Assembly (NCBI GenBank): GCA_903970515.1
Contig: CAJCJA010000002.1
Location: 1 to 64,000, forward strand
Source: Candidatus Saccharibacteria bacterium CG_4_10_14_0_2_um_filter_52_9
GTDB taxonomy: Bacteria; Actinomycetota; Acidimicrobiia; Acidimicrobiales; RAAP-2
Length of the DNA stretch: 64,000 nt
Direction: 5' to 3'
Shown here: positions 3,525 to 24,824 of the stretch, in pieces
Position numbering within the stretch: the stretch's first letter is position 1
How the letters are laid out: every line of letters starts with the position of its first letter
The notes under the pieces: model-generated
Database searches by the model: none
Told to the model about the DNA's origin: nothing
Seen by the model: the letters and a program-made list of their open reading frames with translations, nothing else
Position numbers and translations under genes: made by a program

Positions 3525-5816
3525 ATGGTGGCGGCGCTCGTCGTCATACTGGGTTCCGCTGGTACGTTCCTGGCCGCCAACGTCATATCGAGGAACGCTA
3601 CTCAGGCGTCGCGCCAAAACTTTGACGCGTCGTCGCAAGAGATCGCGTCGACCTTGAAGCTCGCGATTCAACACGAGCAGGACCTTGTCGTGAACGAAGG
3701 TGCATTCTTCGTGGAAAATCCCCACGCGACCCAGGCGCAATTTCTCTCGTGGATCTCCTCGACGCGAACATTCTCTCGTTATCCCGAACTCTCCGGCAGC
3801 GCCCTCGTGGTGATCGTTACCAAGTCACAGCTTCCTGCGTTCGAGGCGAAATCGCTCCAGCATCCTGTGGGCGTCCTTGGTGCCGGTCATACGTTCCAAA
3901 TCATCCCGGCGGGGTCGCGTCCGTTCTACTGCTTCCAACAAGTCGCCGCGACAAGCAGGGGCCCATCGATAACGCCCGTCGGCTACGACTTTTGTGACTC
4001 GTTCTTGGCGCCCGCGCTGCTCGCCGATCGCGATTCGGGGCAGGGCCAGTATTTGCCGTACGGAACGGGGAAGGACGAATTGTTGGTGTTAGGAACGCCC
4101 GTCTACCGCGATGGCGTGACTCCGGCGACCGTCCAAACTCGTCGGGCAAATTTTGTTGGTTGGTCGGGGACGTCCGTTATTCCCAGCGTCATCGTCGCGA
4201 CCGCACTGCAAGACCATCGCGGCATTTCAGCCGCCTTTACGTACATCGGCGGTTCGAAGAACGTCAGTTTCAGCGCGGGCCATGCTCCTTCGCGTGCGCA
4301 GAGTCTGACGGTCCCCTTGCATAACGGTTGGCGCGTGGAGACGTACGGCGCATTGAGCGGTGGCGGCTTGTTCACCAATGGGAACTCGCTGATCTTGCTC
4401 TTAAGCGGCGGAGCGGGCAGCATTATCCTGGGCCTGCTCGTCTTCGTGCTCGGTACCGGCCGCGCCCGAGCACTGGTGTTGGTGAGGGAACGTACCATTG
4501 AACTTCAGCACCGGGCGCTGCACGACCCGCTCACCGGGTTGCCCAATCGGGCGTTGATCCTTGACCGAATCGACCAGATGTTGGCTCGGGCTCGACGTGA
4601 GCGAAGTGCCGTCGCGGTACTCTTCCTCGACCTCGACAATTTTAAAGACGTGAATGACACACTGGGTCACGCGGCGGGTGACCAGTTGCTGATGCAAGTC
4701 GGCGAGCGTCTCTCGGGGGTCTTGCGTGAAGTGGACACTGTGGGGCGACTCGGGGGCGACGAATTCGTCATCCTCGCGCAAGGATCCGCTCTCGCGCCAG
4801 GCGCCGAAGAGGTCGCCCAGCGAGTACTCGACGTGTTGAGACCGCCTTTTGACATCGCCGCGAGCGACACTCCCCTACGAGTCACTGCGAGCATCGGGAT
4901 TGCCGAGGGCATGCGAGAGAAATCGGAGGACCTGCTTCGCGACGCGGACATTGCGCTGTACCAAGCAAAGAGTCTCGGTCGCCGGCGAGCAGTCGCGTTC
5001 TTACCCGCGATGCAAAAGATCGTCGATGAGCGCCAGTCGTTGCTGGTTGATCTGAGCGCGGGACTTGTCGAGCACCAGTTCTTCTTGCTGTACCAACCGA
5101 TCGTCAATCTCGCGACGGGCACGTTCAACGGCGTTGAAGCGATGCTTCGTTGGCGCCACCCGTCACGGGGGGTTGTCATGCCTGAGCAGTTCGTTCCCGC
5201 CCTCGAGGCGAGCGGGATGATGGTGGCGGTGGGAATATGGTCGTTGCAAGAAGCGTGTCGACAAGGTGCGTTGTGGCGCTCCCAGGGGCATCACTTCCCA
5301 ATTTCGGTGAAATTATCGGCGAAGCAACTCGAAAGTGATGACATCATCAACGTCGTGCGTGACGCACTCTCGAGCAGTGGTCTGGAACCTTCGAGTTTGG
5401 TCCTAGAAATCGACGAGACGACGTTAATGCAGGACACTGACGAGACCGCGGATCGACTTCGTGCCCTGAAGGATCTCGGCGTGCATTTGGCGATCGTCGA
5501 TTTTGGGACGTGGTACACGTCGTTGACAAATTTGCGGCGATTCCCGATTGACATGTTGAGAGTTGAGCGGGTGCTCGAGTCAGAATTCGTCGACAACGCA
5601 GAAGTCTCCGTCCTTGAACGCACCGTGGTGCAATTGGGCGAGGCGTTGGGTCTCGAAACCGTGACCGAAGGCGCCCAAGGTCATGATCAACGTCGCCATC
5701 TCATCTCTGCGAACGTCGACACCGGTCGCGAGTCGCTCTTCGCGAAACGTCTCGACGCCGACGGTGTCGATCGACTCTTGAATGATTGGGAGGGCGAACC
5801 CGTCGCCACTCCTTGA
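3525..5816 (+). CDS. CHASE-GGDEF-EAL c-di-GMP protein with intact GGDEF and degenerate EAL
   Basis: 763 residues. A membrane segment (1-25), an extracytoplasmic CHASE-like sensor (about 30-280) and a second membrane segment (about 285-312) lead into GGDEF. The cyclase motif GGDEF (410-414, bases 4752-4766) is intact, with the RxxD inhibitory site (REVD) five residues before it. The phosphodiesterase half is eroded. The EAL motif reads EAM (538-540). The metal-ligand Asn of the NLS motif is Lys (VKLSAKQL). DDFGTG reads VDFGTW, the catalytic Lys is Arg (LRVERV), and the QGY end motif is missing. I infer an active diguanylate cyclase with a non-catalytic, perhaps sensory, EAL domain. The N-terminus starts directly in a membrane helix, so the true start may lie upstream. 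It converges with kaiB. Confidence 0.88.
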   Translation: MVAALVVILGSAGTFLAANVISRNATQASRQNFDASSQEIASTLKLAIQHEQDLVVNEGAFFVENPHATQAQFLSWISSTRTFSRYPELSGSALVVIVTKSQLPAFEAKSLQHPVGVLGAGHTFQIIPAGSRPFYCFQQVAATSRGPSITPVGYDFCDSFLAPALLADRDSGQGQYLPYGTGKDELLVLGTPVYRDGVTPATVQTRRANFVGWSGTSVIPSVIVATALQDHRGISAAFTYIGGSKNVSFSAGHAPSRAQSLTVPLHNGWRVETYGALSGGGLFTNGNSLILLLSGGAGSIILGLLVFVLGTGRARALVLVRERTIELQHRALHDPLTGLPNRALILDRIDQMLARARRERSAVAVLFLDLDNFKDVNDTLGHAAGDQLLMQVGERLSGVLREVDTVGRLGGDEFVILAQGSALAPGAEEVAQRVLDVLRPPFDIAASDTPLRVTASIGIAEGMREKSEDLLRDADIALYQAKSLGRRRAVAFLPAMQKIVDERQSLLVDLSAGLVEHQFFLLYQPIVNLATGTFNGVEAMLRWRHPSRGVVMPEQFVPALEASGMMVAVGIWSLQEACRQGALWRSQGHHFPISVKLSAKQLESDDIINVVRDALSSSGLEPSSLVLEIDETTLMQDTDETADRLRALKDLGVHLAIVDFGTWYTSLTNLRRFPIDMLRVERVLESEFVDNAEVSVLERTVVQLGEALGLETVTEGAQGHDQRRHLISANVDTGRESLFAKRLDADGVDRLLNDWEGEPVATP

Positions 5817-5951: not shown

Positions 5952-6281
5952 TCACGCCTCGATGAGCTCGAGACCCTGCAAGACCTTCGTGGCGTCGGAG
6001 AGATCGCCAATCACTCGGCGCGGTGGACCTGGCGATCGTCGCACCAAGGTGGGGATGGCGCTGATGTTGTTCTCGATCGCCATTTCGGGATGCACGTCGA
6101 GGTCGATCACTTCGATGCGATAGTTACCGGCGAGGTTGCTGTGACAAATTTGCTCGATATTGGCAATAGCACGCAGTGACAGTACCGTTGCACCCACGAC
6201 GTAGAGATCTAGTTCCCACCTGCCCGAGTCACCGTTGGTGTGCGCACCTGCGGCGTGGGCCATGGCGTTCGACTTAACCAT
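5952..6281 (-). CDS. kaiB: Circadian clock protein KaiB
   Basis: 109 residues with the thioredoxin-like KaiB pattern: LDLYVVGATVLSLRAI (first strand and helix), YRIEVIDLDVHPEMA, the PTL turn (SAIPTLVRR), a Pro-rich PGPPRRVIGDLSD, and a terminal LQGLELI. In cyanobacteria KaiB binds the CI ring of KaiC, switches fold and drives the dephosphorylation phase. The RRVIGDLSD stretch, which holds fold-switch residues, is preserved. ATG 6281 lies inside the last codons of kaiC (8-base overlap), so the two are translationally coupled. A second possible start is ATG 6263. There is no kaiA nearby. Confidence 0.9.
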   Translation of the reverse strand: MVKSNAMAHAAGAHTNGDSGRWELDLYVVGATVLSLRAIANIEQICHSNLAGNYRIEVIDLDVHPEMAIENNISAIPTLVRRSPGPPRRVIGDLSDATKVLQGLELIEA

Positions 6282-8034
6282 TGTCGTCGCTCAGCTCGTC
6301 GTTCGTGGACCACCGGGACGTGCGCATAAGATTGCGAAGGTGGAGGACTTCTTCGAGGGCGCCCACGCCTTCGAGGACTGAATCGTCAAGCATGGCCCGT
6401 TCTTCTTCGAAGGCCCGCCAAAGTGCGCCGACTTGGGATTCGACGTCAAGCCTCTTGCGTTCCATTCGCTCTTGGAGGCGCTTCATCAATTCCACTCGCT
6501 CCTCGGCGACGGCTCGTTCCTTTTCAACCTGCAAGATCCGTGCCGTTCCCGTCAGAACACCTGATGGGCCTATGTAGGGGTCGAATAACTCGATGCCGTG
6601 GTCGGTGATGCCGAATTCCGCAACTTGATTGGAATGCGCCATTCCTCGCGATTTGATGATGAAAAGGACCCTGTTTCGCTCGCCGTTGGTCTCGACCAAA
6701 CGCGTCAAGAGCCAGGTGTCGACGAGCGAGGAGATGAGAACCTCGGAATGCTCGTCTTCGCCACTCGAGGACAGCGCAGTGAACACCGACGTGATGCCCC
6801 GACTCTTCAGGATGTCGATCTCTCGAAACAACATCGACGCGGTTTGCTGGGAGCTACCCATCCGCAAGAAACTGGTCACGGGATCGATCACGACGTTGCG
6901 GGGTTCGAACTCATCGACTATTTGCATCAACCAGAGCAGGTGTCCTTCGATGCTGTAGAGCGTTGGGCGTAATGATTCGATGCGCAGGAGACCTTCATCG
7001 AGCCACACTTGGACGTCCAGGCCGACCGAGCGCAGATTTCTCACTATTTGACTTGGCGATTCTTCGTAGGAGATGTAAAGCGTTCGTTCGCCTCGCTCGC
7101 ACGCCGCGCGCACGAAATGAAAGGCGAAGGTGGTCTTCGCCGTGCCCGCCGAACCACTTATGAGTACCGAACTGCCACGGTAGTAACCACCCGTGAGGGT
7201 GTGGTCAAGATGAGCGACACCGGTCGATATCTTCTCGCTGAACGCCTGTTGATCGAGACGCATCGCGAACACGGGCAAGATGTTGATGCCCTTAGAGGTG
7301 ATGATGAAGGGGAACTCGTCGGCGTGGTGCAATGATCCTCGATACTTCAGCACCCGAAGCCGCCGAACGGCACGCTCGTCGCTCGTGCGATGGTCGAGGA
7401 AGATCACACAATCGGAGACGAACTCTTCGATGCCGTAACGCGTGCCGCCTTGGTGACTCGACGACTCGGCGGTGACCATGGCGGTGAGGCCGCGATCCTT
7501 CAGCCATTCGAAGAGCCGGCGCAGTTCCGTACGAACGATCCCAGGGTCTTGGATCGACGTGAACAGGACTTCGAGGGTGTCGAGTGCGATGCGCTTCGCG
7601 CCAATGGCGTTGGCGAGGGTGGCGATGCGAATGAAGAGCCCTTCGAGATTGAACGCGCCCGATTCAGTGGTGTTCACGCCATCGAGACGAACATTGTCGA
7701 TGGCGAGCTTGCCCTGTGCTTCGAGTTCATCGACGTTAAAGCCAATCGATGCGACGTTCGCGACTAAGTCATCGCGGCGCTCTTCGAAAGAGACGAAGAT
7801 GCCGGGTTCGTCGAATTGCGTGGCACCGCGACAGAGGAATTCCATCGAGAGAAGTGTCTTGCCGCATCCCGCGCCACCGAAGACAAGCGTGGGTCGGCCC
7901 TTGGGCAAGCCCCCTTCAAGGATCTCGTCGAGCCCCGTGATGCCGGTGGGCGATTTCTCAATGCCCAGGGGCGGCGCGATTTTCTTGTTACCTGATGGAG
8001 AACTCTTTTTCTTCGCCGGGGTGGCTGCAGTCAT
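6274..8034 (-). CDS. kaiC: Circadian clock ATPase KaiC with coiled-coil tail
   Basis: 586 residues with two RecA-type halves. CI has Walker A GGAGCGKT (53-60), catalytic Glu pair FEE (84-85) and Walker B Asp at 152. CII has Walker A GSAGTAKT (294-301), Glu pair YEE (324-325) and Walker B VVID (381-384). Aligning by eye to Synechococcus KaiC, the Ser431-Thr432 autophosphorylation pair is Ser435-Ser436 (bases 6727-6732), in ISSLVDT. After CII, residues about 500-570 form a charged coiled coil (EKERAVAEERVELMKRLQER). This replaces the short KaiA-binding tail of cyanobacterial KaiC. ATG 8034 is chosen over 8121 because GAGGTGG sits just upstream. The gene is divergent from a PAS-LuxR regulator. 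Confidence 0.93.
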   Translation of the reverse strand: MTAATPAKKKSSPSGNKKIAPPLGIEKSPTGITGLDEILEGGLPKGRPTLVFGGAGCGKTLLSMEFLCRGATQFDEPGIFVSFEERRDDLVANVASIGFNVDELEAQGKLAIDNVRLDGVNTTESGAFNLEGLFIRIATLANAIGAKRIALDTLEVLFTSIQDPGIVRTELRRLFEWLKDRGLTAMVTAESSSHQGGTRYGIEEFVSDCVIFLDHRTSDERAVRRLRVLKYRGSLHHADEFPFIITSKGINILPVFAMRLDQQAFSEKISTGVAHLDHTLTGGYYRGSSVLISGSAGTAKTTFAFHFVRAACERGERTLYISYEESPSQIVRNLRSVGLDVQVWLDEGLLRIESLRPTLYSIEGHLLWLMQIVDEFEPRNVVIDPVTSFLRMGSSQQTASMLFREIDILKSRGITSVFTALSSSGEDEHSEVLISSLVDTWLLTRLVETNGERNRVLFIIKSRGMAHSNQVAEFGITDHGIELFDPYIGPSGVLTGTARILQVEKERAVAEERVELMKRLQERMERKRLDVESQVGALWRAFEEERAMLDDSVLEGVGALEEVLHLRNLMRTSRWSTNDELSDDNG

Positions 8035-8567
8035 GGTTCCACCTCTGCAAAGATAGGAAGACGATTCGGTTCTCCTACAATGTAACGTCGCGAACCTATT
8101 CGTCATACGAATTTCCTGCAACTCGATGATGTGTCGCCTTCAAAGGACATACTGTCAGTTCGACACCGATTCAGAGTTGGATGTAGAACAAAAAGTTTTT
8201 ACTTATTTGTGTGCTTGATACGTGGTATCGATACTCATATTCCAAATGCTGTGACTTGGTGCTCGACGGAAGCCTTCAAGTGCCGCGATAAGGGTATTTT
8301 TTGTCGAAGAACGACTTGTTGGCCTCGCCTGAACCACGAACGTCCCGTACTGCGAAAGTGGGTGCGCCAGGCAATGGGGAATCGAAGTGCAACGTCGAAA
8401 TTTGACGATGAGCGCCTAAAGGGAAGCGCATTCGCGCGGTTGCTATGTACGTTTTGAAAGCCCTCACAGGTAGTGATCCGAACACTTCGTCGGCACTGCG
8501 CTGACTCTGATTGCTGGCCGTCGAAAGAATCCTGTCTGACCTACCATTCGAAGAAAGAGGTGTGAGC
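8035..8567. promoter_or_regulatory. Divergent intergenic region between kaiC and a PAS-LuxR gene
   Basis: About 530 bases with no credible gene; it should hold both divergent promoters. The part around 8150-8260 is visibly AT-richer than its surroundings. It contains AAAAAGTTTTT near 8191-8201 and a perfect 10-base palindrome, GTATCGATAC, at 8225-8234. Either could be a regulator site, but neither is a known operator. A frame at 8131-8457 was judged non-coding. Confidence 0.4.
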
Positions 8568-9614
8568 ATGTCGGAACTGGATCGAACGTCGCCAGGCGGC
8601 GAGCTGTGGAGTTTCGTCGGTGATCTCCCGCTTCCACTTTATTTGATCGACCTCTCCACGTACAAGATCATCAATGCCACTGGGGACTTGATGGCCATCA
8701 TCGAGCGACCCGTCGAAGATGTCATTGGGCATCAAGTGTTCGATCTCTACAATCCTCGAGAACACAAGAATATCGACACGGCGCTCTCGTCGCTCGCGAA
8801 GGGTTCCATCGATTTCTTCCGCTCACGGCGAATTCTCGCGTACCCTTCGACTGGCACACACGGCGTCACGGTGTGGGTCAAGGTGCTTGAATTCGGGGAT
8901 CAGAAAGTGGGGCTCGCCGAGGTTTGTAACCGCTACGACGCTGTCGAGAGCCCCCTCTTGCAGTACCTAGGTTTCACGCCGCAAAAGATCGCGGCAGGAT
9001 TCACCGACGCAAAAGGCATCGTGACGGCGGTGAGCAACGATGTCGAATCACTTGTCGGTATCCCCGCCGCTCGCCTGGTGGGTCACCACTTGCTCAACGA
9101 CGCCGATCAGCGTCGCTGGGAGGAGATGTACGCGTCACCACCGGTGATGGGCGGCTATTCAATTTCGCACACCCTCGAACGTGAAGAAGTCAATGGCGTG
9201 GCGATACGAACTCGATGCATCCTCACCAGCTTCGCTAACTCCTCCGTGCGATGTTTCATTTTGATTGGCGAGCCGAAAAACCTGGTCAAGAACGCGAACG
9301 CTCGCATTGCGGAACTCGAGCAACGGCTGTGGCGGATCGCTGGTGAAGTCCAGGCGAGTGGTGTCTTTGATCCCGTCAAGAGTATTCCGGATCTCACCAA
9401 GTTCGACCAGATGGGTTCGCTGAGTGGAAGAGAATGGGAGGTGCTCACTCGACTCTTAAGCGGCGAGCGAGTCGCTTCGATCGCGCGGGTTCTCTTCGTG
9501 AGCCAAAGTACGATTCGCAACAATCTCAGTTCGATCTTTCGGAAGTTCGGCGTTCACTCGCAAGCGGAACTCTTGACGCTCTTGGCGCACCCGAAAGAAG
9601 AGTCGGTTCGTTAA
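8568..9614 (+). CDS. PAS-domain LuxR-family transcriptional regulator
   Basis: 348 residues. Two PAS-like sensor segments are visible (about 15-115 and 130-245; for example LPLYLIDLSTYKIINATG and GFTDAKGIVTAVSNDVESL). A helical linker and a C-terminal LuxR/FixJ helix-turn-helix (about 285-340) follow; SQSTIRNNLSSIF is the recognition helix and KFGVHSQAELL closes the motif. There is no receiver domain, so the input is probably a ligand, redox or protein contact at PAS. ATG 8568 follows AGAGGTG; an upstream ATG at 8511 is less likely. The protein has a paralogue of the same architecture at 14981-16099. Divergent orientation to kaiC suggests it may regulate, or respond to, the Kai pair; this is inference. 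Confidence 0.85.
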   Translation: MSELDRTSPGGELWSFVGDLPLPLYLIDLSTYKIINATGDLMAIIERPVEDVIGHQVFDLYNPREHKNIDTALSSLAKGSIDFFRSRRILAYPSTGTHGVTVWVKVLEFGDQKVGLAEVCNRYDAVESPLLQYLGFTPQKIAAGFTDAKGIVTAVSNDVESLVGIPAARLVGHHLLNDADQRRWEEMYASPPVMGGYSISHTLEREEVNGVAIRTRCILTSFANSSVRCFILIGEPKNLVKNANARIAELEQRLWRIAGEVQASGVFDPVKSIPDLTKFDQMGSLSGREWEVLTRLLSGERVASIARVLFVSQSTIRNNLSSIFRKFGVHSQAELLTLLAHPKEESVR

Positions 9615-9652: not shown

Positions 9653-12646
9653 TTACTCCGAAGCAGGCTTCGAACACAAGAGCGATGTCGCTTCAGTGAA
9701 ATCGACCGCTCGGCTCCAAAGGAAACCTTGACCGATTTTGCAACCCATACGCTGCAATGTTTCCCTCTGTGCTTCGACCTCGATGCCTTCAGCGACGATT
9801 CTCAGATCTAGCACGGCGGCGATGCCCATGATTGCCTTGATGAGCGTCGATTCCTCGCCATTCGCTGGAAGCGTGGCGACCATTCCCTTGTCGATTTTCA
9901 TGTAGTCGAATGGATACTCGTGAAGTCGAAGCATCGACGAATAGCCCGTGCCAAAGTCATCGAGGGCGAGTTGCACGCCGAGTTCCTTCAATCCTTGCAG
10001 CACCGCGAGCGCCGATTCAGGGTTGGTCATCGAAGATTCAGTAATCTCGATGCAAAGTTGTCCAGGGTCGATATCCTCTTCGAGCAGAACTTCTTGAACG
10101 ACACCAACGATCGTTTCGTTGATTTGCGTCGGCGAGAGATTGAGCGCAACCGTGATTCGATTATTCAATCGAAGTGAGCGCCACGTGCGCAGTGCCTGAC
10201 AGGTCGTGCGAAGCACCGACTTGAAAATCGCGTCGATGAGTCCGCTTTCCTCGGCGAGGGGAATGAACTCATCGGGCGAAATCGCTCCGAGCTTCAAGTG
10301 TCGCCAACGGGCCAGCGCCTCGAAGCCGATTATCTCGCCCGTCGAAAGGGACACGACGGGCTGAAAGTACGTCTTGATGGCGTCGTTTTCGATGGCATTG
10401 ATGAGTTCGTCACGCAAATGACTTCTTCGAACGAGTTCATCGTGCGACGTGGCGTCAAAGACGCCGTAATTCGAGAAGCCGAGCTGACTCGCCGAGGACA
10501 TGGCGATATCGGCACCGCGAAGGAGTTCATCCGCGTTCGCGTCGCGCCAAACCAGAACCACACCCACGCGAAGGGCGTAGGGTACCTTCTCCATTCCAAC
10601 TGACAGGGGCATTCGGGAATGTTCGACGAGTTGCGCGGCAAAGGCGATCGCCTCATCGGATGAATCAAGGTATTCCATGCAAAGGGCGAATTCGGTGCCG
10701 CCAAAATGCGCGAGGAAGTCGTCCGGGCGAAGCTCGTTCGAGAACGTCCGAGCCCAGGCTTCCATAGCGTCCTCTCGGGACGCCAAGCCGGTTCGCCCGT
10801 GCACCGCGGCCTTTTCTTCGAAATCAACGAGGACCACGGCGAGGGACTTCGACGTTTCGCGAGAACGTATGAGGACCGCATCGAGATGCTCGAGGAACAG
10901 GCGTCGATTGGGAAGTCCCGATTGCGAGTCGTGGCGCGCCTGGTAGGCGAGCTGGTCCTCGAGTTCTCGCAAGTCGCGTATGTCAATGGACGCCGAGAGG
11001 GTCCCGTGGAAGTCCAACTCCTCGATGTGAATATTCTCGACCTTCGCGCGTACGGGGATCAGCGTGGCGTCAGCGCGCCGGGCGTCGTAGGTGCCTTCCC
11101 ATGAGCCGTATTCGGCGAGCGATTCGCCCACGACATGGGCGAAGCTGTGTCGTACCCCTAGATCGGACATGCTTCTGCCGATCGCGTCATCCTTGGAAAA
11201 TCCGTAGATCTCCTCGGCGCTTTGATTCCAGTAGACGATCGTTTCGCACTCGTCGTAGACAATGACGGCGGCTGGGAGGCGCTCGAGCAATCTCGACTCG
11301 AGGTTGCGAGCGATGCTGGCGAACTTTCGATTGGTCACGTCGTGACCAATCACCGTGATGGCCTTTATATCGGGATCGTCCAGTCGATTGGTCGCCCGGA
11401 GGTCGAGAATGTGCTGGCGTCGTCGCTCGTCGTAGACGCGAAGTTCCACTTGCTCGCTGGCCATTGGCTTGGCGACGAGGCGAGCGAGTAGCTCGTGAGC
11501 TTTCTGCACGTCGGCGGGTACCAAATTGGCGAATCCATTGAACGAAGTGGCCGTGAAGTCTGTCGTGCCGAGAATATTTCGAGTGGACAGTGAGCGCTCG
11601 AGCACGTTGCCGTTCACGTCCAGCAGCGCGAAGACTCTCGGCTCGTCGGAATGTTCATCCGCGTGGATCTGTTCAACGTGGTGCGTCGCACCGTGATTTT
11701 CGTCGCCGGCCATTTGTTCACTGAGTCGCACGTCGGTGATATCAATGTGCGATACGTGAGCGTACTCCCCAGCGGCGACGACTCGTACGCTTCGCCAATG
11801 ATCTTGACCATCGAACGGGCAGTAGTAGTCGCAACTGAAACGATTGATGTCGCCGACGAGCACTGATCGAATGCCTCGCGCGACGTCACGCGCTTCCTTC
11901 GCGAACTCGTCACTGGCGTGATCGCACGTCGTCAGATAATTCGCACCTACTCCCGTTTTTCCCGCGGGCACACCGCTGCGTAGCTCTAGCTCGCGCCAGG
12001 TGTGATTTACCGAAACGATGAGGCCGGTTCGATCGATGATCGCCGAGGGCACTTTCAATTCTTCAAAGGCCGCCGCCGCGATCAATTCTTCTTCGTTGAT
12101 GAGAGGGGGACCCGATCGGCGTCGAAGCGCATTGGTGATGGTCTCGCGGAGAACGGGGGTACTCAATTCATCCTTGTCAACGACACCGTCGGCCCCGTGC
12201 GACAGCGCTTCGAAGTGCAACGATTTTTCCGCGACGCTCGCGAGTACGACGATCGGGGAGTGGGGGGCGCTGCGAGCAAGGACACTGAGGCCACTGAATT
12301 CTCGGGTGTCGGGCAGACTCAAGTCGAGAAAGATGACGTCAAAGGATGAGTCGCTGATCAGACTGCACGCGTCATCGATCGTCTCAACGACCCGTACTTC
12401 AACGTCGTGATTGATCTCGAGCAGCGCCTCTCGTAACAAGATCTGGTCGACGGCGCTGTCTTCGATGACGAGCGCTCGACGAAAGACATCGCTGGATAGG
12501 GCTACTTCGTTTGTGGGTGGATCTTGCTCGGCGCCAGATCTTGTTGAGCGAGGCGTCGCCAGAGATGACGCGGCGTTGCGCGTTCGCTTTGCATCTGATG
12601 CGCCGGAGTCCTCAAAACTGAAGAGGCGGTGCTCACTGGGATTCAT
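9653..12646 (-). CDS. REC-PAS-GGDEF-EAL protein with degenerate GGDEF and intact EAL
   Basis: 997 residues. The receiver domain (about 57-175) has acidic residues in IEDS and the phosphoacceptor Asp108 in FLDLSLPD. Two or three PAS/PAC segments span about 190-560. The cyclase motif reads GGTEF (649-653, bases 10688-10702), so the metal-binding Asp is lost, although the RxxD site (RPDD) remains. The EAL domain is complete: EAL at 776-778, NLS Asn, EITE Glu, DDFGTG, KID Lys, AEG Glu and GQG. I infer a c-di-GMP phosphodiesterase controlled by phosphorylation and PAS input. The gene lies 46 bases downstream of the kinase-like gene on the same strand, so the two are likely co-transcribed. Confidence 0.9.
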   Translation of the reverse strand: MNPSEHRLFSFEDSGASDAKRTRNAASSLATPRSTRSGAEQDPPTNEVALSSDVFRRALVIEDSAVDQILLREALLEINHDVEVRVVETIDDACSLISDSSFDVIFLDLSLPDTREFSGLSVLARSAPHSPIVVLASVAEKSLHFEALSHGADGVVDKDELSTPVLRETITNALRRRSGPPLINEEELIAAAAFEELKVPSAIIDRTGLIVSVNHTWRELELRSGVPAGKTGVGANYLTTCDHASDEFAKEARDVARGIRSVLVGDINRFSCDYYCPFDGQDHWRSVRVVAAGEYAHVSHIDITDVRLSEQMAGDENHGATHHVEQIHADEHSDEPRVFALLDVNGNVLERSLSTRNILGTTDFTATSFNGFANLVPADVQKAHELLARLVAKPMASEQVELRVYDERRRQHILDLRATNRLDDPDIKAITVIGHDVTNRKFASIARNLESRLLERLPAAVIVYDECETIVYWNQSAEEIYGFSKDDAIGRSMSDLGVRHSFAHVVGESLAEYGSWEGTYDARRADATLIPVRAKVENIHIEELDFHGTLSASIDIRDLRELEDQLAYQARHDSQSGLPNRRLFLEHLDAVLIRSRETSKSLAVVLVDFEEKAAVHGRTGLASREDAMEAWARTFSNELRPDDFLAHFGGTEFALCMEYLDSSDEAIAFAAQLVEHSRMPLSVGMEKVPYALRVGVVLVWRDANADELLRGADIAMSSASQLGFSNYGVFDATSHDELVRRSHLRDELINAIENDAIKTYFQPVVSLSTGEIIGFEALARWRHLKLGAISPDEFIPLAEESGLIDAIFKSVLRTTCQALRTWRSLRLNNRITVALNLSPTQINETIVGVVQEVLLEEDIDPGQLCIEITESSMTNPESALAVLQGLKELGVQLALDDFGTGYSSMLRLHEYPFDYMKIDKGMVATLPANGEESTLIKAIMGIAAVLDLRIVAEGIEVEAQRETLQRMGCKIGQGFLWSRAVDFTEATSLLCSKPASE

Positions 12647-12692: not shown

Positions 12693-14795
12693 TCACTCAC
12701 TCTCTCGCGATGGCGCCAAAGTGAACCAGATGGTTGAGCTAGCTTCGACGTCACGGTGGCTGCCAAAGTCGCCACCGTGCGCGTTGACGATCCGCGCCGC
12801 GATGGCAAGATCGAGCCCCGTACCCGCGAAGGTGTTGCGAGCGTGGGGGCGTTGGAGCATCTGCACTGCCGTCGTGGGGCGCTCAATGTCCTGCAGGACG
12901 CTGCGCGTGACCACGGTTACCTTCGTGCAACCAGCTTCAGAAGTATTGGACGTCACCTCAATGGCGATGTGTTCACCCTCATCATGCGACGACAAGGAGT
13001 GGCGCAACACATTCTCGAAGACTTGTATTAGCAGGGTACGGTTCGCGTGAACGCTCGCGAGGTCACCAACGTTGAGCTCCAAGTCGAAACGGTCGAGCTC
13101 GAGCACCATGTTGGACATCGCGATATCCAAGACGCGGTTCAGTTCCACGTTCTCCGACGGCGGAGTCCCCGACCCGGTCGCGGCGAAGTTCTGGAGGTTG
13201 GCGATCATTGCGCGCATTCGCAAGCAAGCATTGGACGTGTGCCGCAGGTATTCATTGGCGTCGTCGCCGAGCTGATCGTGATATTTGCGCTCAAGGAGTG
13301 AGACCATCCCCGTGATGGCTCGTAACGGTTCGGCGAGGTCGTAGGCCGTCACGTACGCAAAGCGTTCGAGTTCCTCACTCGACTCCTTAAGTCGACGATC
13401 ACGGAGTTCCAACTCTTGACGCGCAACATCGAGCTCGTGCTGGGACTTCTTCTCGGGCGCGAGGTTTCGCGCGCGCGACAAAACGCCAAAGACGCGACCC
13501 TTGACATTTCGAATCGGCGAAAGCGTTTCCTCAACAACGAGTTGCTGTCCGTCGCGTCGCGTTCGCTGAATCTCGGAGCGGTCCACTCGCTCAGCAGAAT
13601 CATCCTTCAGCATCCGAAGCAGTTCTTCCGCGGCAGAGGGGAGTACCTCGCTCACCGAGGCGGCGAACGCTTGCTCGTAACTGATGCCGTAGAGCAACTC
13701 GGCGCCGCGGTTCCAGCTCATCACTCGTCCGTCCACGTCGATGGCGACAACGGCATCTTCCACGCAGTCAAGGATGTCGCTGAGGACAACTTGTTCGACT
13801 TCGTTTCGACGAATTGCAGAATTCGGCCAATCAATCGTCATTAAACTTGACATTGGAGAGTGGCTGACCTCGCTTCCGACGTTGCCCTCGGAAGATGATG
13901 TGGGCGAAAATAACGGTTCGTCAAGCAAGTCGATTGAATTCGTAACGTCCACGCACGTGCACACCACTTGGCTGGACTCGTCACCTTCGCCCGGAGCGAG
14001 TTCGGCGACGACTTGGAGCGTACGGGGTTCGCCATCCGGGCGAAGGACGTGCAACACGAATTCGCAATGAGAAGTGCTCACGACGCTGCGCAACGATGTT
14101 TCCACGTGCTCTCGCTCGTCTTGCGCGACGAGTTGGACGAATTCGACGAGATTCCTGTCCCAGTTGTCGCTCGAGACCCCGAGAATGTCGTACATCTCCC
14201 TCGTGAGCAAGAAGACTTGTTCAGTGTCTACGTCGAATGCGAAGATGCCCAAGCGAGTGTGTCGCGCGGCGCGGCTCGACTGCTGCGCCGCACCATTCTG
14301 GCGATCTCGAAGCAGCTCGATGTCGTACGCCAGTTCGTCGACCAAGGCGCGCAATTCGATGAGTTCACTCGTGCCGAAGGCGTCTTCGGTCTCGGCGTAG
14401 ACGGCGAGTGCGGCGATGACCCCATCGCTGGTGATAATCGGCAGCGCGCACGACGAACGGATTGTCAAGCCCGAGCGCTTGACTGGCGCAGTGCTCGCAT
14501 CGCGTGGTTTGGTATAGGTGGCGACTTGCACGGTGCCGAGGAGAATCGCCACGGTCACCGCGCTGTTGTAGGAATCGGGTCCTCGCCAGCTGTCCTTCAA
14601 ATCTTCCAAGTACTCCGTGTGTCCCGCGGACGCGATGGCGCGCACCGAGAAGTTGTCGGCAAACGCGGGCGCTCCAACCCACGCCAGCACATACTTGCCG
14701 GTCTCCATAAGTTGCATGCACGAGAGCGTGATAAGCGACGCCTCTTCGACGCTCGATTCGTTCCTCGGAGTGGGAACATGGTTCACTGGCTTCAT
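12693..14795 (-). CDS. GAF/PAS histidine-kinase-like protein lacking the phospho-accepting His
   Basis: 700 residues. An N-terminal GAF-like domain (about 15-165), a PAS (about 180-280), a second PAS (about 345-450, VVAIDVDGRVMSWNRGAE), a coiled coil, a HisKA-like helix pair and a C-terminal ATPase-like domain follow in order. The H-box reads FAYVTAYDLAEPLR. Relatives have SHDL at this place, so the phosphoacceptor is Tyr485 (bases 13341-13343). The ATPase domain keeps a G2-like GTGLDLAIA, but the N box is poor (VFENVLRHS) and no DxGxG is seen. It is probably a pseudokinase or scaffold. It has no membrane segment, so it is cytoplasmic. The REC protein encoded next could receive phosphate from elsewhere. 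Confidence 0.8.
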   Translation of the reverse strand: MKPVNHVPTPRNESSVEEASLITLSCMQLMETGKYVLAWVGAPAFADNFSVRAIASAGHTEYLEDLKDSWRGPDSYNSAVTVAILLGTVQVATYTKPRDASTAPVKRSGLTIRSSCALPIITSDGVIAALAVYAETEDAFGTSELIELRALVDELAYDIELLRDRQNGAAQQSSRAARHTRLGIFAFDVDTEQVFLLTREMYDILGVSSDNWDRNLVEFVQLVAQDEREHVETSLRSVVSTSHCEFVLHVLRPDGEPRTLQVVAELAPGEGDESSQVVCTCVDVTNSIDLLDEPLFSPTSSSEGNVGSEVSHSPMSSLMTIDWPNSAIRRNEVEQVVLSDILDCVEDAVVAIDVDGRVMSWNRGAELLYGISYEQAFAASVSEVLPSAAEELLRMLKDDSAERVDRSEIQRTRRDGQQLVVEETLSPIRNVKGRVFGVLSRARNLAPEKKSQHELDVARQELELRDRRLKESSEELERFAYVTAYDLAEPLRAITGMVSLLERKYHDQLGDDANEYLRHTSNACLRMRAMIANLQNFAATGSGTPPSENVELNRVLDIAMSNMVLELDRFDLELNVGDLASVHANRTLLIQVFENVLRHSLSSHDEGEHIAIEVTSNTSEAGCTKVTVVTRSVLQDIERPTTAVQMLQRPHARNTFAGTGLDLAIAARIVNAHGGDFGSHRDVEASSTIWFTLAPSRESE

Positions 14796-14980: not shown

Positions 14981-16099
14981 TCAATTCTGGGCGTTGAGCA
15001 CCGAAAATACAATCGACAGAGTGTCCTGATGCAGTTGCGAAACGTCAGAATTGCTCAACAAATCGAGGAGTTCGGCTTGGGAGTGTACACCAAACTTCTG
15101 GAAGATTTCGCTGAGCGTGTTACGAACGGCGCTCGGACTTATGAAGAGCGCCGCGGCGATTGACGAGACGCGTTCTGCGCGCAGGAGTCGGCGCAACACT
15201 TCTAATTGGCGGGCGTTCAGTGCGTCAATTTGTGGCGAATGAGTATCCGGCGTCATCCGGTCGAACGAGTCGAGAACGCGACTGGCTTGAATCTCCTGCG
15301 CGATGCGCACTAGGTGAAGTTCGAGTTGCGAAGTTCGTTGCGAATGGCGCGTAGTGCGGATGACGGCGTGAAGGGAAATGATGAAGCACTGGTCTGTTGT
15401 ACCCGCGAGAGCCGTGAGGATGCACAGAGGCTCCAGTTCCTCTGACTGTTGGTCGCGCCGCGCCATTCGAAGTGCCACGGAGTGAGAGAGAGTGTAATTT
15501 TTCCTATCGTCAACGAGTGTACGAACGTGTTGTTCCTCGCTCGCCGTGAAGAGTCGATGACCAATTAGTTCCTCGCTACTGACACCAAGAACGTCACGAA
15601 CTTGAGAACTGACCGAGGTGACGATCCCGTCGCCATCGATGAGACCGACCACCACGTCGTGGCGAGAGTATTCGAAGTTCTCCGAAAAAATGAACGATTT
15701 GGGTTCGAGACCAATGTTCATCTCATTGAGCGCGAAACTCTTCCCTGCAGCATCGAAGGGCCAGACGCGCGTCCACAGAAATGATCCTTCCTCGGCGAGA
15801 ATGCGGGCGTCGGGTTCGCGTTTGCTCGTGTAGGACTCGACGTGTCGTTTTTCGAGTTGGCGCAGAGCGCCCATCATTTTGTTTCGTTCCTTCGTGGCGA
15901 TCAGAGCGGTCGCAGAATGGCGCAAGACGTCGGCGGCGGTCAGTCCCGTTTGTTCGATGAAAGTGTTGCTGGCGGCGACAATCGTGAGCGACTCGAGGTC
16001 AATGAGCGAAATCGCTAGCGAGAATTCGCCGTCGAGGAGAGTTCGTCGCTCGTCGCCCAGTGCTGAAGTGTCAACTTGGGCATCTTCGATAATCGCCAT
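14981..16099 (-). CDS. PAS-domain LuxR-family transcriptional regulator (paralogue)
   Basis: 372 residues with the same layout as the regulator at 8568-9614: PAS-like segment (SLAISLIDLESLTIVAAS), second PAS (VVVGLIDGDGIVTSVSSQV), a helical linker and a LuxR helix-turn-helix. The ends match almost motif for motif: SPSAVRNTLSEIFQKFGV here against SQSTIRNNLSSIFRKFGV there. The linker is also conserved (RIAQEIQAS against RIAGEVQAS), indicating duplication. ATG 16099 follows AGAGGATGG, favouring it over an in-frame start at 16210. It is the first gene of the minus-strand row leading into the kinase-like gene, after a 185-base gap. Confidence 0.85.
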   Translation of the reverse strand: MAIIEDAQVDTSALGDERRTLLDGEFSLAISLIDLESLTIVAASNTFIEQTGLTAADVLRHSATALIATKERNKMMGALRQLEKRHVESYTSKREPDARILAEEGSFLWTRVWPFDAAGKSFALNEMNIGLEPKSFIFSENFEYSRHDVVVGLIDGDGIVTSVSSQVRDVLGVSSEELIGHRLFTASEEQHVRTLVDDRKNYTLSHSVALRMARRDQQSEELEPLCILTALAGTTDQCFIISLHAVIRTTRHSQRTSQLELHLVRIAQEIQASRVLDSFDRMTPDTHSPQIDALNARQLEVLRRLLRAERVSSIAAALFISPSAVRNTLSEIFQKFGVHSQAELLDLLSNSDVSQLHQDTLSIVFSVLNAQN

Positions 16100-16298
16100 A
16101 AGTGTCCATCCTCTTGATGAACCCTTTGGCGCACATACACCATTGTAGGCGTCGGTTGCAAATCGCAATCGTTCCTTGTCGCATCGAGCCACGTGTCGGT
16201 GTCCTTGCAAAGAACGTTCGACTCACGTCGCTCGTTCGGTGCCAAGTCTGAGATCAGCGAAGTGGTGGTGTCCCGAGACGTGCGATTGAAGCGGTTGC

Positions 16299-16624: not shown

Positions 16625-17422
16625 TTAGATTGACAGTGTGATGCTCACCGGGCAGTGATCGCTCCCCATGATGTCGGCGTGGATCTCGGCCGACTCGAGT
16701 CGAGGCGCAAGGTCCGACGACACGAGGAAGTAGTCGATGCGCCAACCCACGTTGTTGGCGCGGGCGTTGGAAAAATTCGACCACCAGGTGTAGTGACCGT
16801 TGCCCTGGGTGAAGACTCGAAACGAGTCCACGAAGCCGGCTTTCAAAAGGGCTTCGAATCCGCTGCGCTCTTCGCTGGTGAATCCCGCCTTACCGACATT
16901 GACCTTCGGATTGGCGAGGTCGTCATTCGTGTGCGCGACGTTGAGGTCGCCGCAGACCGCGACGGGTTTCTTCTTCATGAGCTTTTTCATGTAGTCAAGG
17001 AAGGCGGGATCCCATTTCTGATGCCGTAATGCGAGGCGGCTGAGGTCGCCCTTGGCGTTGGGCGTGTAGGCGGTGACCAGGTAAAAATCCTCGAATTCGG
17101 CGGTGACGACCCGCCCCTCGTCGTTGGGATTGCCGTAGGCGTCGCTCTCGAGCCCGTGCTTTTTCGCTATCGCCGAGGGCAAGCCGGTGACGACCGACAA
17201 CGGCGTGATCTTGGACGCGATGGCGGTACCCGAATAACCCTTCTTTGACGCCGAGTGCCAATATTGCTCGTAGCCCTCCAAGTTCGCGTCGACTTCGTGC
17301 TCTTGGGCCTTGGTCTCTTGCATGCAGATGATGTCGGGTTGCAGTGACTCGAGAAACGGTGCGAACAAGCCCTTTCGTTCGACCGCCCGAATCCCGTTCA
17401 CGTTCCATGACACGATGCGCAT
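16625..17422 (-). CDS. xthA: Exodeoxyribonuclease III (AP endonuclease)
   Basis: 265 residues of the exonuclease III/AP endonuclease family, which cuts DNA at abasic sites during base excision repair. Visible motifs are MRIVSWNVNGIRA (Asn metal ligand), CMQETKAQ (catalytic Glu), AYTPN (Tyr), VCGDLNVAH (Asp/Asn) and MGSDHCPV at the C-terminus (catalytic Asp-His pair). All active-site residues are present. ATG 17422 begins exactly at the family's N-terminal strand; the upstream TTG at 17437 adds only five residues. Confidence 0.95.
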   Translation of the reverse strand: MRIVSWNVNGIRAVERKGLFAPFLESLQPDIICMQETKAQEHEVDANLEGYEQYWHSASKKGYSGTAIASKITPLSVVTGLPSAIAKKHGLESDAYGNPNDEGRVVTAEFEDFYLVTAYTPNAKGDLSRLALRHQKWDPAFLDYMKKLMKKKPVAVCGDLNVAHTNDDLANPKVNVGKAGFTSEERSGFEALLKAGFVDSFRVFTQGNGHYTWWSNFSNARANNVGWRIDYFLVSSDLAPRLESAEIHADIMGSDHCPVSITLSI

Positions 17423-17507
17423 GCGCCATGGTAACAAGATGGGTTGTCGCGATGAGTCGCCATCGACGCCGCCCGCAAGGACAACGACAACGACTAAATT
17501 GTGGGGC

Positions 17508-17696
17508 GTGTCTGATTATTCCAACGAGAGCGTGATCGCGATTGAAAACACGCTTAACGAGGTCGACCGAGCGCTCGAGCGCCTACGCGTGGGTACCTAT
17601 CGAACGTGTCAGGTGTGCGACGCGCCCATCGACGACGCCGAACTCGTGAAGAACCCGTTGTTGGCCAACTGTCGCGCGCACCCTGAACTCTCCTGA
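17508..17696 (+). CDS. Small DksA/TraR-like zinc-finger protein
   Basis: 62 residues. A short helical part (SVIAIENTLNEVDRALERLR) is followed by GTYRTCQVCDAPID. The finger has spacing C-x2-C-x17-C-x2-H, the DksA/TraR arrangement with the last Cys replaced by His. The protein is much shorter than DksA and lacks its coiled-coil tip, so action on RNA polymerase cannot be assumed. Starts at GTG 17508 or TTG 17499 are both possible. It is divergent from xthA. Confidence 0.7.
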   Translation: MSDYSNESVIAIENTLNEVDRALERLRVGTYRTCQVCDAPIDDAELVKNPLLANCRAHPELS

Positions 17697-17749
17697 TCAA
17701 CCGGTACTGAACGTAGTGGTGTCAGCCGAAGTGCAGCGACCGCACAGCC

Positions 17750-18166
17750 CTACTTCTTGGTCGCCCAGAACAACTCGGCGATCGCGTCGATCTCGCTGAG
17801 CAGCCGATCGGCGACGACGACGTCGTTGGTCTTCTTCGATTCACCGGCCGACTTGGTCGCCATCCAGAACAGGTCGTGCAGGTTCGGGAACTCCTTCAGG
17901 TGTTCGACCTTGAAGTAGTCCGTCCACAGCACCCACAGGTGGTGCTTGACGAGATCGGCGCGCTCTTCTTTGATGATGGTGGCACGCACCTTGAAGTCAG
18001 GGTCGCTCGAGGCGTTGTACTTCTCCATGCAGGCCTTGACTGACTGCGCTTCGAGCTTCGCCTGGGCGGGGTCGTACACACCGCAGGGAAGGTCGCAGTG
18101 CGCCGAGACGCAAAGAGGTTCGATGTGCTTGTCGAGTACTGCGTTGATTCGGGAAAGAAGCGTCAT
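17750..18166 (-). CDS. sodN: Nickel superoxide dismutase
   Basis: 138 residues. A 22-residue leader (MTLLSRINAVLDKHIEPLCV plus Ser-Ala) precedes the nickel hook HCDLPCGVYDPAQ. Cleavage before His23 would expose His1, Cys2 and Cys6, the Ni ligands known for this family. The rest matches the four-helix SodN subunit (for example WVLWTDYFKVEHLKEFPNL). The enzyme dismutes superoxide as a hexamer. An extended frame to 18322 exists, but the leader begins naturally at 18166, after an AAAGG. The maturation protease gene is divergent about 90 bases away. Confidence 0.95.
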   Translation of the reverse strand: MTLLSRINAVLDKHIEPLCVSAHCDLPCGVYDPAQAKLEAQSVKACMEKYNASSDPDFKVRATIIKEERADLVKHHLWVLWTDYFKVEHLKEFPNLHDLFWMATKSAGESKKTNDVVVADRLLSEIDAIAELFWATKK

Positions 18167-18257
18167 GGCTTCGCCTTTCGAATGTCGTGGCCCGTGGTCC
18201 CGAGGCCTTTTGTCTCCTTCGAAGATTAGCGAGCGTGTGCCGATATCGTTCAATTTC

Positions 18258-18554
18258 GTGGTAGTCATCCTTCGGATCCTTCTTCGCCGATTTGAGGTCG
18301 AGGGGCCTTCCATGCTGCCCACCTACCTACCGGGCGAGCGACTGACCGCCATTCGCCGATGGCGCGCCGTGAAGGTCGGCGACGTGGTGGTGCTGCGCGA
18401 TCCGCGCGATCGAGATCGTTGGATCATCAAGCGCTGCGCGCGAAAAGAGGGGCGGATGCTCGACCTTCGAGGGGACAACCCCGACGGGTCCACCGATTCG
18501 CGAGAATTCGGACTCGTCGAACAAAAGCTCGTTCGCTGGATCGTGCTGCCCTGA
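18258..18554 (+). CDS. sodX: Nickel-SOD maturation protease (S26 signal-peptidase family)
   Basis: About 98 residues. RRFEVEGPSMLPTYLPGERL carries the S26 nucleophile Ser in GPSM, and RWIIKRCARK carries the general-base Lys. GDNPDGSTDSREFG is the S26 C-terminal signature. In actinobacteria this protease is encoded beside sodN and is thought to remove the SodN leader to expose the nickel hook. The start is uncertain (GTG 18258 or GTG 18237; neither has a clear ribosome binding site). It is divergent from sodN. Confidence 0.85.
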   Translation: MVVILRILLRRFEVEGPSMLPTYLPGERLTAIRRWRAVKVGDVVVLRDPRDRDRWIIKRCARKEGRMLDLRGDNPDGSTDSREFGLVEQKLVRWIVLP

Positions 18555-18640
18555 AATCGTCGTTGAGCAGCAATTTTGCCGCTGGTGGCCCCTCGTGCCG
18601 CGACCTTATTAATAGGTCCGTTCACCGGTATGCTCGCCCC

Positions 18641-19858
18641 GTGGCTCGTCTCTGCGTTCTCTCGTATCACACCTCGCCCCTGGCCCAGCCCGGCACCGGC
18701 GACGGCGGAGGAATGAACGTCTACGTCCGCGAGCTCTCGAGCGCATTGGCTCGTTTGGGCCACGAGGTCGACGTCTACACGCGTCGCGACAGTACCCACG
18801 CGAGCGACGTCGTGGACGTCGAACCCGGGCTTCGGGTCCACCACGTCAGCGCCGGACCCGTGGCGCCACTCGAACGCGACGAATTGGCGAATCACGTCAA
18901 GGAATTCACCGACGCCGTCGCCGCGTCGTTTCGCAGCGACGGGGTGCCCGACGCCATCCACGCGAACTACTGGCTGAGCGGTCTCGTGGGACATCGTCTT
19001 AAGCACGAGCTCAACATCCCGCTCATCATGACCTTTCACACCCTCGAGCGAGTGAAGGCCGACCATTTCGAGGCCGAATCAGAGGAGCGAGCTCTCCAAG
19101 AGGCGGCGATTTTCGCTTGCGCCGACGCCGTGCTCGCCAGCTGCGAGGTGGAGGCGGAACAGTTCGTCACGTTCTACGACGCCGATCCGCGTCGCGTGCA
19201 CGTCGTGCCCCTGGGCGTCGAGCACGCGTTCTTTGCGCCGGGGTATCGGCCCCAGGCTCGACGCGCACTCGGCCTCGACGGCATCGAGACGATGCTGCTC
19301 TTCGTCGGACGTTTGCAAGCCCTCAAGGGCGTCGACCTCGCGCTCGAGACGCTGATCGAACTTCGCTCGCGAGGTCGCAACGCCATGCTCGCGGTCGTCG
19401 GGGGACCGTCGGGATCCCAGGGACGCGGCACGCTCGCCCAGTTGCATAGTCGCGTCGCGGACGCGGGCGTGATCGAGCACGTGCGTTTCGTCGCACCCCA
19501 GGGACACCAACTTCTTTCGACGTGGATGCGCGCGGCGGACGTCACCCTCGTACCGAGTCGCTCGGAGAGTTTTGGGCTCGTCGCGCTCGAGTCCTCGGCG
19601 TGCGGTACGCCGGTCGTCGCGAGCAACGTTGGCGGCCTCATGACGCTGATTGAGCCAGGCGTGAACGGCTTCTTGGTGAGCGAGCGCGACGAGCACGCCT
19701 GGGCCGACGCGGTCGAGGTGGCGCTCACTCCCGAGACGACGACCGCCATGAGCAATGACGCAGTGTTGCTCGCGCGAAAGTACACGTGGCGGGCGGCGGC
19801 GGCGTCGCTGGCGGGACTCATGGAGCAGCTCGCGGCGTCGGGTCTCGTGTCCTGCTAG
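18641..19858 (+). CDS. mshA: D-inositol-3-phosphate glycosyltransferase (mycothiol synthesis)
   Basis: 405 residues, GT-B family 4. The N-terminal VLSYHTSPLAQPGTGDGGG with MNVYVREL is diagnostic for MshA, which joins N-acetylglucosamine from UDP-GlcNAc to inositol 3-phosphate as the first step of mycothiol. The C-terminal half has the donor-site signatures LLFVGRLQALKGVD and SRSESFGLVALESSACGTPV. GTG 18641 starts exactly at the conserved first strand. The downstream YbjN-domain gene begins immediately after the stop, the same order as in mycobacteria. Confidence 0.93.
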   Translation: MARLCVLSYHTSPLAQPGTGDGGGMNVYVRELSSALARLGHEVDVYTRRDSTHASDVVDVEPGLRVHHVSAGPVAPLERDELANHVKEFTDAVAASFRSDGVPDAIHANYWLSGLVGHRLKHELNIPLIMTFHTLERVKADHFEAESEERALQEAAIFACADAVLASCEVEAEQFVTFYDADPRRVHVVPLGVEHAFFAPGYRPQARRALGLDGIETMLLFVGRLQALKGVDLALETLIELRSRGRNAMLAVVGGPSGSQGRGTLAQLHSRVADAGVIEHVRFVAPQGHQLLSTWMRAADVTLVPSRSESFGLVALESSACGTPVVASNVGGLMTLIEPGVNGFLVSERDEHAWADAVEVALTPETTTAMSNDAVLLARKYTWRAAAASLAGLMEQLAASGLVSC

Positions 19859-20350
19859 ATGCGCGCACCTATTGGCGACGCTGACGCGCCCGAGCAACTC
19901 GACGCCGTCATCAAAGAGTGGGCGCGGCTCTGGCACGCGAATGGATTTGTCGCCGACGTCGAGCACGCAAGCCACAGCGACAACAAGGGCCAGTATCACT
20001 GGATGATCAGGCTTCGCGGCGAGGAAAAAGACGTCATTGCGTTGTGGTTGACGTTGCGCCAGCGCACCGTGCACGTCGAGACCCAGGTGATGCCCGCGCC
20101 CGAAGAGAACCTCGAGACGCTGTACAAATTTCTCTTGGTGAAGAACGCCGAACTGCGCGAACTGCACCTCGCGATTGGCCCCGAAGAGGGGATCTACCTC
20201 CTCGGCCAAGTCCCCATTGGTGAAGTCACACTCGAGCGACTCGACGAGATCGTTGGGGCGACGATGCAGTACGTTGACGAGATCTTTCCGACCGCGATGT
20301 CACTGGGACTGAGTTCGTTGTATCGACGTCGTCGACGCAACCCTTTGTGA
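19859..20350 (+). CDS. YbjN-domain protein
   Basis: 163 residues of the YbjN/type III chaperone-like fold, with an N-terminal helix (LDAVIKEWARLW), a strand-rich middle (TVHVETQVMPAPEENLETLY) and the typical end VTLERLDEIVGATMQYVDE. The start codon abuts the mshA stop, so it is in the same operon. The mshA-ybjN pairing is conserved in actinobacteria, but its reason is unknown. A role as a chaperone or regulator is speculation. Confidence 0.8.
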   Translation: MRAPIGDADAPEQLDAVIKEWARLWHANGFVADVEHASHSDNKGQYHWMIRLRGEEKDVIALWLTLRQRTVHVETQVMPAPEENLETLYKFLLVKNAELRELHLAIGPEEGIYLLGQVPIGEVTLERLDEIVGATMQYVDEIFPTAMSLGLSSLYRRRRRNPL

Positions 20351-20399
20351 ACCGGCTTCATCCCTAGGGACTTCGAGGGGCACCTTGTAGCCTTGTCGC

Positions 20400-21206: not shown

Positions 21207-21229
21207 GAAGTTTTAGTAACGTTCCGGAG

Positions 21230-21919: not shown

Positions 21920-21943
21920 CATTGTCTCCAACATGGAGAACTC

Positions 21944-24782: not shown

Positions 24783-24824
24783 TTGCGCGAAGGTTGTCTC
24801 GGCGACCAGTAATAGGCTTGGGGC

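What the first reader, a model, noticed from the sequence alone, without database searches (positions are those of the whole stretch)
5952..8034. KaiC-KaiB clock pair without KaiA in an actinobacterium
Seen: complete kaiC (both Walker A and both catalytic Glu pairs) and kaiB in a coupled operon, in a genome whose other genes are clearly actinobacterial. Known: Kai systems are worked out in cyanobacteria; kaiBC without kaiA occurs elsewhere, with simpler timing or stress roles. Inference: a timing or stress-integrating switch feeding nearby c-di-GMP and LuxR proteins.
Basis: partly seen in the sequence, partly recalled or inferred. Interest (0 to 1): 0.8.

Follow-up and report, generated by a model that had tools for sequence, protein, structure and literature searches.

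The report
KaiBC hourglass-type timer in an actinobacterium
This actinobacterium carries a two-protein relative of the cyanobacterial clock (KaiC and KaiB, no KaiA) of the simpler hourglass type known from purple bacteria, set in a cluster of second-messenger and transcription genes; it is a real and rather divergent member of a known, widespread family, not a new kind of clock.

Summary
In detail: kaiC (6274-8034, minus strand, 586 aa) and kaiB (5952-6281) are real and overlap by 8 nt; no KaiA was found. KaiC is not of the cyanobacterial kind. Its closest solved relative is Rhodobacter sphaeroides KaiC (553 bits against about 316), sharing the Ser-Ser phosphosites and the ~80-residue C-terminal helix of that KaiA-independent, ATP/ADP-driven hourglass. 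Such loci occur in many phyla, including about 4% of sampled Actinomycetota, and a histidine kinase or GGDEF/EAL gene beside them was reported in 2011: a new member of a known kind. Distinctive: a second, 52%-identical kaiBC operon in the same 2-Mb genome; a CII Walker A with Ala for the last Gly (GSAGTAKT), seen only in this lineage; a module (two PAS-LuxR regulators, a degenerate histidine kinase, REC-PAS-GGDEF-EAL, KaiC, KaiB, CHASE-GGDEF-EAL) kept at the same site in a second species, with kaiB in only 2 of 99 genomes of the genus; c-di-GMP enzymes that look split into one synthase and one phosphodiesterase; and a unique conserved 27+17-nt element ahead of kaiC. Timing, phosphorylation and output are inferred, not shown.

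The parts
6274..8034 (-). kaiC, 586 aa, two RecA-like KaiC domains plus a C-terminal helical extension
5952..6281 (-). kaiB, 109 aa, overlaps the kaiC stop by 8 nt
7855..7878 (-). CI Walker A, residues 53-60, GGAGCGKT
   Evidence: coordinates computed from residue numbers
7132..7155 (-). CII Walker A, residues 294-301, GSAGTAKT; A299 replaces a Gly kept in 85 of 87 KaiCs
6727..6732 (-). S435-S436, the Ser-Ser phosphosite pair (aligned with S413/S414 of R. sphaeroides KaiC)
6313..6549 (-). C-terminal helix, residues 496-574, equivalent of the R. sphaeroides coiled-coil extension
   Evidence: (pLDDT about 90 to residue 550)
8179..8205 (-). Conserved non-coding block 1, TAAGTAAAAACTTTTTGTTCTACATCC, 144 nt before the kaiC ATG
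   Evidence: identical and equally spaced in bog_769; its 24-nt core is unique in both genomes
8146..8162 (-). Conserved non-coding block 2, CGAACTGACAGTATGTC, 111 nt before the kaiC ATG
8568..9614 (+). LuxR-type (GerE) regulator with a weakly PAS-like N-terminal region, divergent from kaiC
9653..12646 (-). REC-PAS-GGDEF-EAL protein; GGDEF degenerate (GGTEF), EAL residues intact: predicted c-di-GMP phosphodiesterase
12693..14795 (-). GAF/PAS histidine-kinase-like protein; phospho-acceptor His replaced (VTAYDL): predicted pseudokinase
14981..16210 (-). Second PAS-LuxR regulator
3525..5816 (+). CHASE-GGDEF-EAL protein; GGDEF intact, EAL degenerate (EAM, VDFGTW, TEGAQ): predicted diguanylate cyclase

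Best explanation
The pair is a KaiA-independent KaiBC timer of the R. sphaeroides (KaiC2-like) hourglass type. [quoted passage not shown] This gives a switch that lags behind, and is reset by, the energy state; it is not a self-sustained clock. Its state is probably passed to the conserved neighbours: the divergent PAS-LuxR regulator and a c-di-GMP pair of one synthase and one phosphodiesterase. Shown by sequence: family, active-site residues, tail helix (predicted), missing KaiA, conserved module. Inferred: phosphorylation, dodecamer, timing, and every link to the neighbours.
For: R. sphaeroides KaiC is the best solved match by sequence (8dba 553 bits over residues 23-550; cyanobacterial about 316) and by fold (ranks 1-17 are all R. 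sphaeroides KaiC). SS phosphosites and both Glu pairs kept. Tail of 95 aa after GVLTG against 97 in R. sphaeroides; single helix 496-574. KaiB matches R. sphaeroides KaiB best. KaiA absent; no SasA-type KaiB-domain kinase, as the only KaiB-domain matches are the two KaiB genes. Mechanism of the relative: PMC10076222. Module order and site kept in bog_769, with kaiC (78%) and kaiB (77%) its best-kept genes while 57-74% of four-fold degenerate sites differ. Conserved element before kaiC at identical spacing.
Against: A299 in the CII Walker A and 21 shared departures from near-universal KaiC residues (other KaiCs: median 3, maximum 13), including R472A, suggest altered CII chemistry. No direct evidence of any activity. 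Coupling to c-di-GMP rests on neighbourhood only; in S. elongatus c-di-GMP was found to act on the clock only indirectly (PMC13001216). No phytochrome was found and the rhodopsin search was uninformative, so a light-driven day/night ATP cue is not evident.
Confidence: 0.55

Rival explanations
1. KaiBC here is a stress or redox/energy switch without timekeeping, as proposed for Legionella, acting through contacts with the PAS and c-di-GMP proteins.
For: The neighbours are sensory (GAF, PAS, CHASE, REC); no phytochrome; a stress role is reported for the KaiC2 homologue of Legionella (PMC5520375).
Against: SS sites, Glu pairs and tail helix of the hourglass type are all kept.
Confidence: 0.25
2. 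The neighbourhood is an accessory island of signalling genes in which kaiBC lies by chance; the c-di-GMP and LuxR proteins are not its output.
For: The module lies in a stretch that differs among congeners next to a conserved glycosyltransferase-proC block, kaiB is found in 2 of 99 genomes of the genus, and GC3 is lower (0.60-0.71) than in the flank (0.77-0.82).
Against: The same gene order is kept in bog_769 despite 53-78% protein identity; kaiBC next to HK or GGDEF/EAL recurs in 43 of 62 named loci with enough sequence and in PMC3164672.
Confidence: 0.15
3. This KaiC lineage has lost its CII kinase cycle and serves as an ATPase scaffold, the real timer being the second operon on contig C28.
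For: A299 and 21 shared departures in the window lineage; the C28 copy keeps GKT and sits by a histidine kinase that keeps its His.
Against: In bog_769 only the window-type two-domain KaiC was found, S435/S436 and both CII Glu are kept, and kaiC is the best-kept gene of the module. AKS/AKT Walker A motifs are compatible with ATPase activity in MCM and MoxR proteins (own knowledge, not tested).
Confidence: 0.12
4. A self-sustained circadian oscillator.
For: Homology to KaiC and KaiB only.
Against: No KaiA; the closest characterised relative is an hourglass, not an oscillator (PMC10076222); R. palustris KaiBC sustains rhythm poorly (PMC4794148).
Confidence: 0.03

Closest known systems
Rhodobacter (Cereibacter) sphaeroides KaiBC hourglass (PDB 8DBA, 8FWI, 8FWJ; PMC10076222)
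   Same: Two KaiC domains, SS phosphosites, C-terminal helical extension of equal length, kaiC followed by kaiB, KaiA-independent
   Different: 46-48% identity; Ala in CII Walker A; the R. sphaeroides neighbour is an HWE histidine kinase, here a pseudokinase, two LuxR and two GGDEF-EAL proteins
kaiC-kaiB loci of other Actinomycetota (Solirubrobacterales, Frankiales, Acidimicrobiia EGI L10123 and others)
   Same: Same KaiC type, kaiC-kaiB order, often a GGDEF-EAL gene downstream
   Different: Most have a second kaiB and lack the CHASE-GGDEF-EAL/LuxR/HK-like set; they form a separate, strongly supported branch
Own second operon, contig C28 (L007:7155-9254)
   Same: kaiC-kaiB with SS sites and tail; clusters with the window KaiC (99/99)
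   Different: 52% identity, canonical GKT, different partners (hybrid PAS kinase that keeps its His; REC-wHTH-PAS-EAL-GGDEF)
Cyanobacterial KaiABC (S. elongatus)
   Same: CI/CII layout, Walker motifs, Glu pairs, KaiB
   Different: No KaiA, SS instead of ST, long tail helix, no SasA-type kinase; below the circ_KaiC cut-off (329.8 against 546.25)
Rhodopseudomonas palustris and Legionella pneumophila kaiBC
   Same: KaiA-less KaiC2-type systems with autophosphorylation reported (PMC4794148, PMC5520375)
   Different: Different hosts and partners; not aligned here

Membership tests
KaiA-independent KaiBC (R. sphaeroides-type / KaiC2-like) | Two tandem KaiC ATPase domains | tested here: met
KaiA-independent KaiBC (R. 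sphaeroides-type / KaiC2-like) | Catalytic Glu pairs in CI and CII | tested here: met
   E84-E85 and E324-E325
KaiA-independent KaiBC (R. sphaeroides-type / KaiC2-like) | Walker A GxxxxGK[ST] in CI | tested here: met
   GGAGCGKT
KaiA-independent KaiBC (R. sphaeroides-type / KaiC2-like) | Walker A GxxxxGK[ST] in CII | tested here: inconclusive
   GSAGTAKT: Lys and Thr kept, one departure (A299) whose effect in this family is not known
KaiA-independent KaiBC (R. sphaeroides-type / KaiC2-like) | Ser-Ser phosphosites | tested here: met
   S435-S436
KaiA-independent KaiBC (R. sphaeroides-type / KaiC2-like) | C-terminal extension of about 50 aa forming a long helix | tested here: met
KaiA-independent KaiBC (R. 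sphaeroides-type / KaiC2-like) | KaiB partner gene, no KaiA | tested here: met
KaiA-independent KaiBC (R. sphaeroides-type / KaiC2-like) | Dodecamer, autophosphorylation, ATP/ADP-driven reset | not testable with these tools
   needs purified protein
Cyanobacterial KaiABC clock | KaiA present | tested here: not met
   control S. elongatus rings
Cyanobacterial KaiABC clock | Ser-Thr phosphosites and circ_KaiC model score | tested here: not met
   SS; 329.8 against 546.25
Cyanobacterial SasA output | Histidine kinase with KaiB-like domain | tested here: not met
   only two KaiB-domain matches in the genome, both KaiB genes

The most novel reading that the evidence does not exclude
A lineage-specific KaiBC with altered CII chemistry (A299) gates a dedicated c-di-GMP circuit in which one neighbour only makes and the other only breaks c-di-GMP, running beside a second KaiBC with canonical motifs in the same 2-Mb genome: two parallel hourglass timers, one wired to a second messenger.
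Probability: 0.2. Interest if true: 0.7.

Novelty: new member of a known kind. Interest (0 to 1): 0.38.

Why it matters
No paper I opened described a Kai system of Actinomycetota, yet KaiB is present in about 4% of sampled species, so the hourglass family reaches further into soil bacteria than that literature shows. This genome has two diverged copies, and one module stays intact across two species with apparently split c-di-GMP enzymes and a unique conserved upstream element, which makes the older suggestion that kaiBC works with GGDEF/EAL proteins directly testable.

Tried and rejected
Horizontal transfer as the origin: GC3 and patchy presence fit it, but the KaiC tree puts the window copy with the C28 copy, and the join to other actinobacterial KaiCs is supported in the quick tree and unresolved in the careful one, with long branches; left open. 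Sigma-70 promoters near kaiC: none found; terminators no more than chance. Known RNA elements in the window: none. Conserved block in front of the C28 kaiC: not found. First structure model from four sequences was poor (pLDDT 59.6); replaced by one from 58 (83.2). Rhodopsin search uninformative because no control rang. Literature searches for kaiBC with Acidimicrobi and for KaiC with Solirubrobacter gave nothing; the actinobacterial paper opened reports that R. lacicola and A. photophilum lack Kai proteins (PMC8591293).

Full report
Observation. kaiC runs from an ATG at 8034 to a stop at 6274 on the minus strand (586 aa) and kaiB from 6281 to 5952 (109 aa), overlapping by 8 nt. Pfam gives KaiC 5.3e-114 in two stretches and KaiB 73 bits; NCBIfam PRK09302 gives 657 bits against a cut-off of 408, while the cyanobacterial model circ_KaiC gives 329.8 against 546.

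What kind of KaiC. The best solved relatives are the R. sphaeroides KaiC entries (553 bits over residues 23-550, most of the tail included); cyanobacterial KaiCs score about 316. KaiB also matches R. sphaeroides KaiB best. In an alignment of 87 KaiCs the window protein keeps both Glu pairs, CI GGAGCGKT, the arginines in the KYRG and SRGM stretches, and Ser-Ser at the phosphosites. Its tail after GVLTG is 95 aa against 97 in R. sphaeroides, and a 58-sequence AlphaFold2 model (pLDDT 83) has one helix from 496 to 574; Foldseek puts R. sphaeroides KaiC at ranks 1-17, ahead of all cyanobacterial KaiC. KaiA is absent and no SasA-like KaiB-domain kinase was found. In R. sphaeroides this type is a dodecamer held by the tails, phosphorylates without KaiA, and is reset by the ATP-to-ADP ratio with KaiB promoting hydrolysis: an hourglass (PMC10076222). 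I infer the same for the window pair.

Departures. A299 replaces the last Gly of the CII Walker A only in the window and bog_769 (2 of 87). These two share 21 departures from residues kept in at least 93% of other KaiCs; other rows have a median of 3 and a maximum of 13. CII may therefore work differently, although kinase residues are kept.

Genome and distribution. The 1.97-Mb genome (96% complete) has a second kaiBC on contig C28, 52% identical in KaiC, with a hybrid PAS kinase and a REC-wHTH-PAS-EAL-GGDEF protein. The two KaiCs cluster at 99/99, with long branches. KaiB is in 2 of 99 genomes of the genus and 17 of 397 Actinomycetota, own genome included in both; many named actinobacterial loci exist. 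Of 80 named loci, 79 have kaiB and 49 two or more; of 62 with at least 4 kb downstream, 43 have an HK or GGDEF/EAL gene within 4 kb. The 2011 Ramlibacter paper had already noted this neighbourhood (PMC3164672).

Module. In bog_769 the order LuxR, HK-like, REC-PAS-GGDEF-EAL, LuxR (opposite), kaiC, kaiB, CHASE-GGDEF-EAL (opposite) is the same, beside the same xth gene. Identities: xth 97%, glycosyltransferase 93%, proC 89%; kaiC 78%, kaiB 77%, CHASE 73%, LuxR 66 and 62%, HK 64%, REC-EAL 53%. Seven congeners examined at the glycosyltransferase-proC block show no trace of it, but four of those contigs end within about 5 kb, so three are fully informative. GC3 is 0.60-0.71 in the module and 0.77-0.82 in the flank.

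Neighbour activity, predicted from residues only. The window CHASE protein keeps GGDEF but its EAL domain has EAM, Lys for Asn, VDFGTW, Arg for Lys and TEGAQ; bog_769's EAL is intact. The REC protein has GGTEF (GGSEF in bog_769) and an intact EAL in both. The HK-like protein has Tyr (Arg in bog_769) in place of the phospho-acceptor His. So the window genome appears to pair one cyclase with one phosphodiesterase and a pseudokinase.

Upstream element. The kaiC-LuxR intergenic region is otherwise diverged but holds a 27-nt and a 17-nt block, identical in both species and at identical distances (144 and 111 nt) from the kaiC start; the longest shared run in shuffles is 11 nt. A 24-nt core of the first block is unique in both genomes with up to 3 mismatches. 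It is a candidate promoter or operator; its function is not shown.

Verdict. Real, and a divergent new member of a known hourglass-type family; the c-di-GMP and LuxR output is a reasonable, testable inference.

Noticed in passing
L007:7155-9254 (own genome contig C28): Second kaiBC operon, with a 1266-aa PAS hybrid kinase and a 1047-aa REC-wHTH-PAS-EAL-GGDEF protein.
   Followed up: partly
window 8146-8205 (-): 27-nt and 17-nt non-coding blocks identical and equally spaced before kaiC in two species; no such block before the C28 kaiC.
   Followed up: yes
L025:9070-11959 (bog_769 genome, contig C50): Orphan kaiB beside a REC-PAS protein and a PAS histidine kinase, with no KaiC there.
   Followed up: no
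L026:7434-13044 (G074, same order): kaiC followed by two kaiB genes, a PAS-GGDEF-EAL gene and a wHTH-EAL fusion; its KaiC has Ala at the first phosphosite.
   Followed up: partly
window 3525-5816: EAL domain degenerate in the window genome but intact in bog_769, so the loss is lineage-specific.
   Followed up: partly
window 16625-27088: Right flank looks like a core block: xth, glycosyltransferase, proC, rex and heme genes (apart from the xth domain, names are from reading the sequence, not searched).
   Followed up: no
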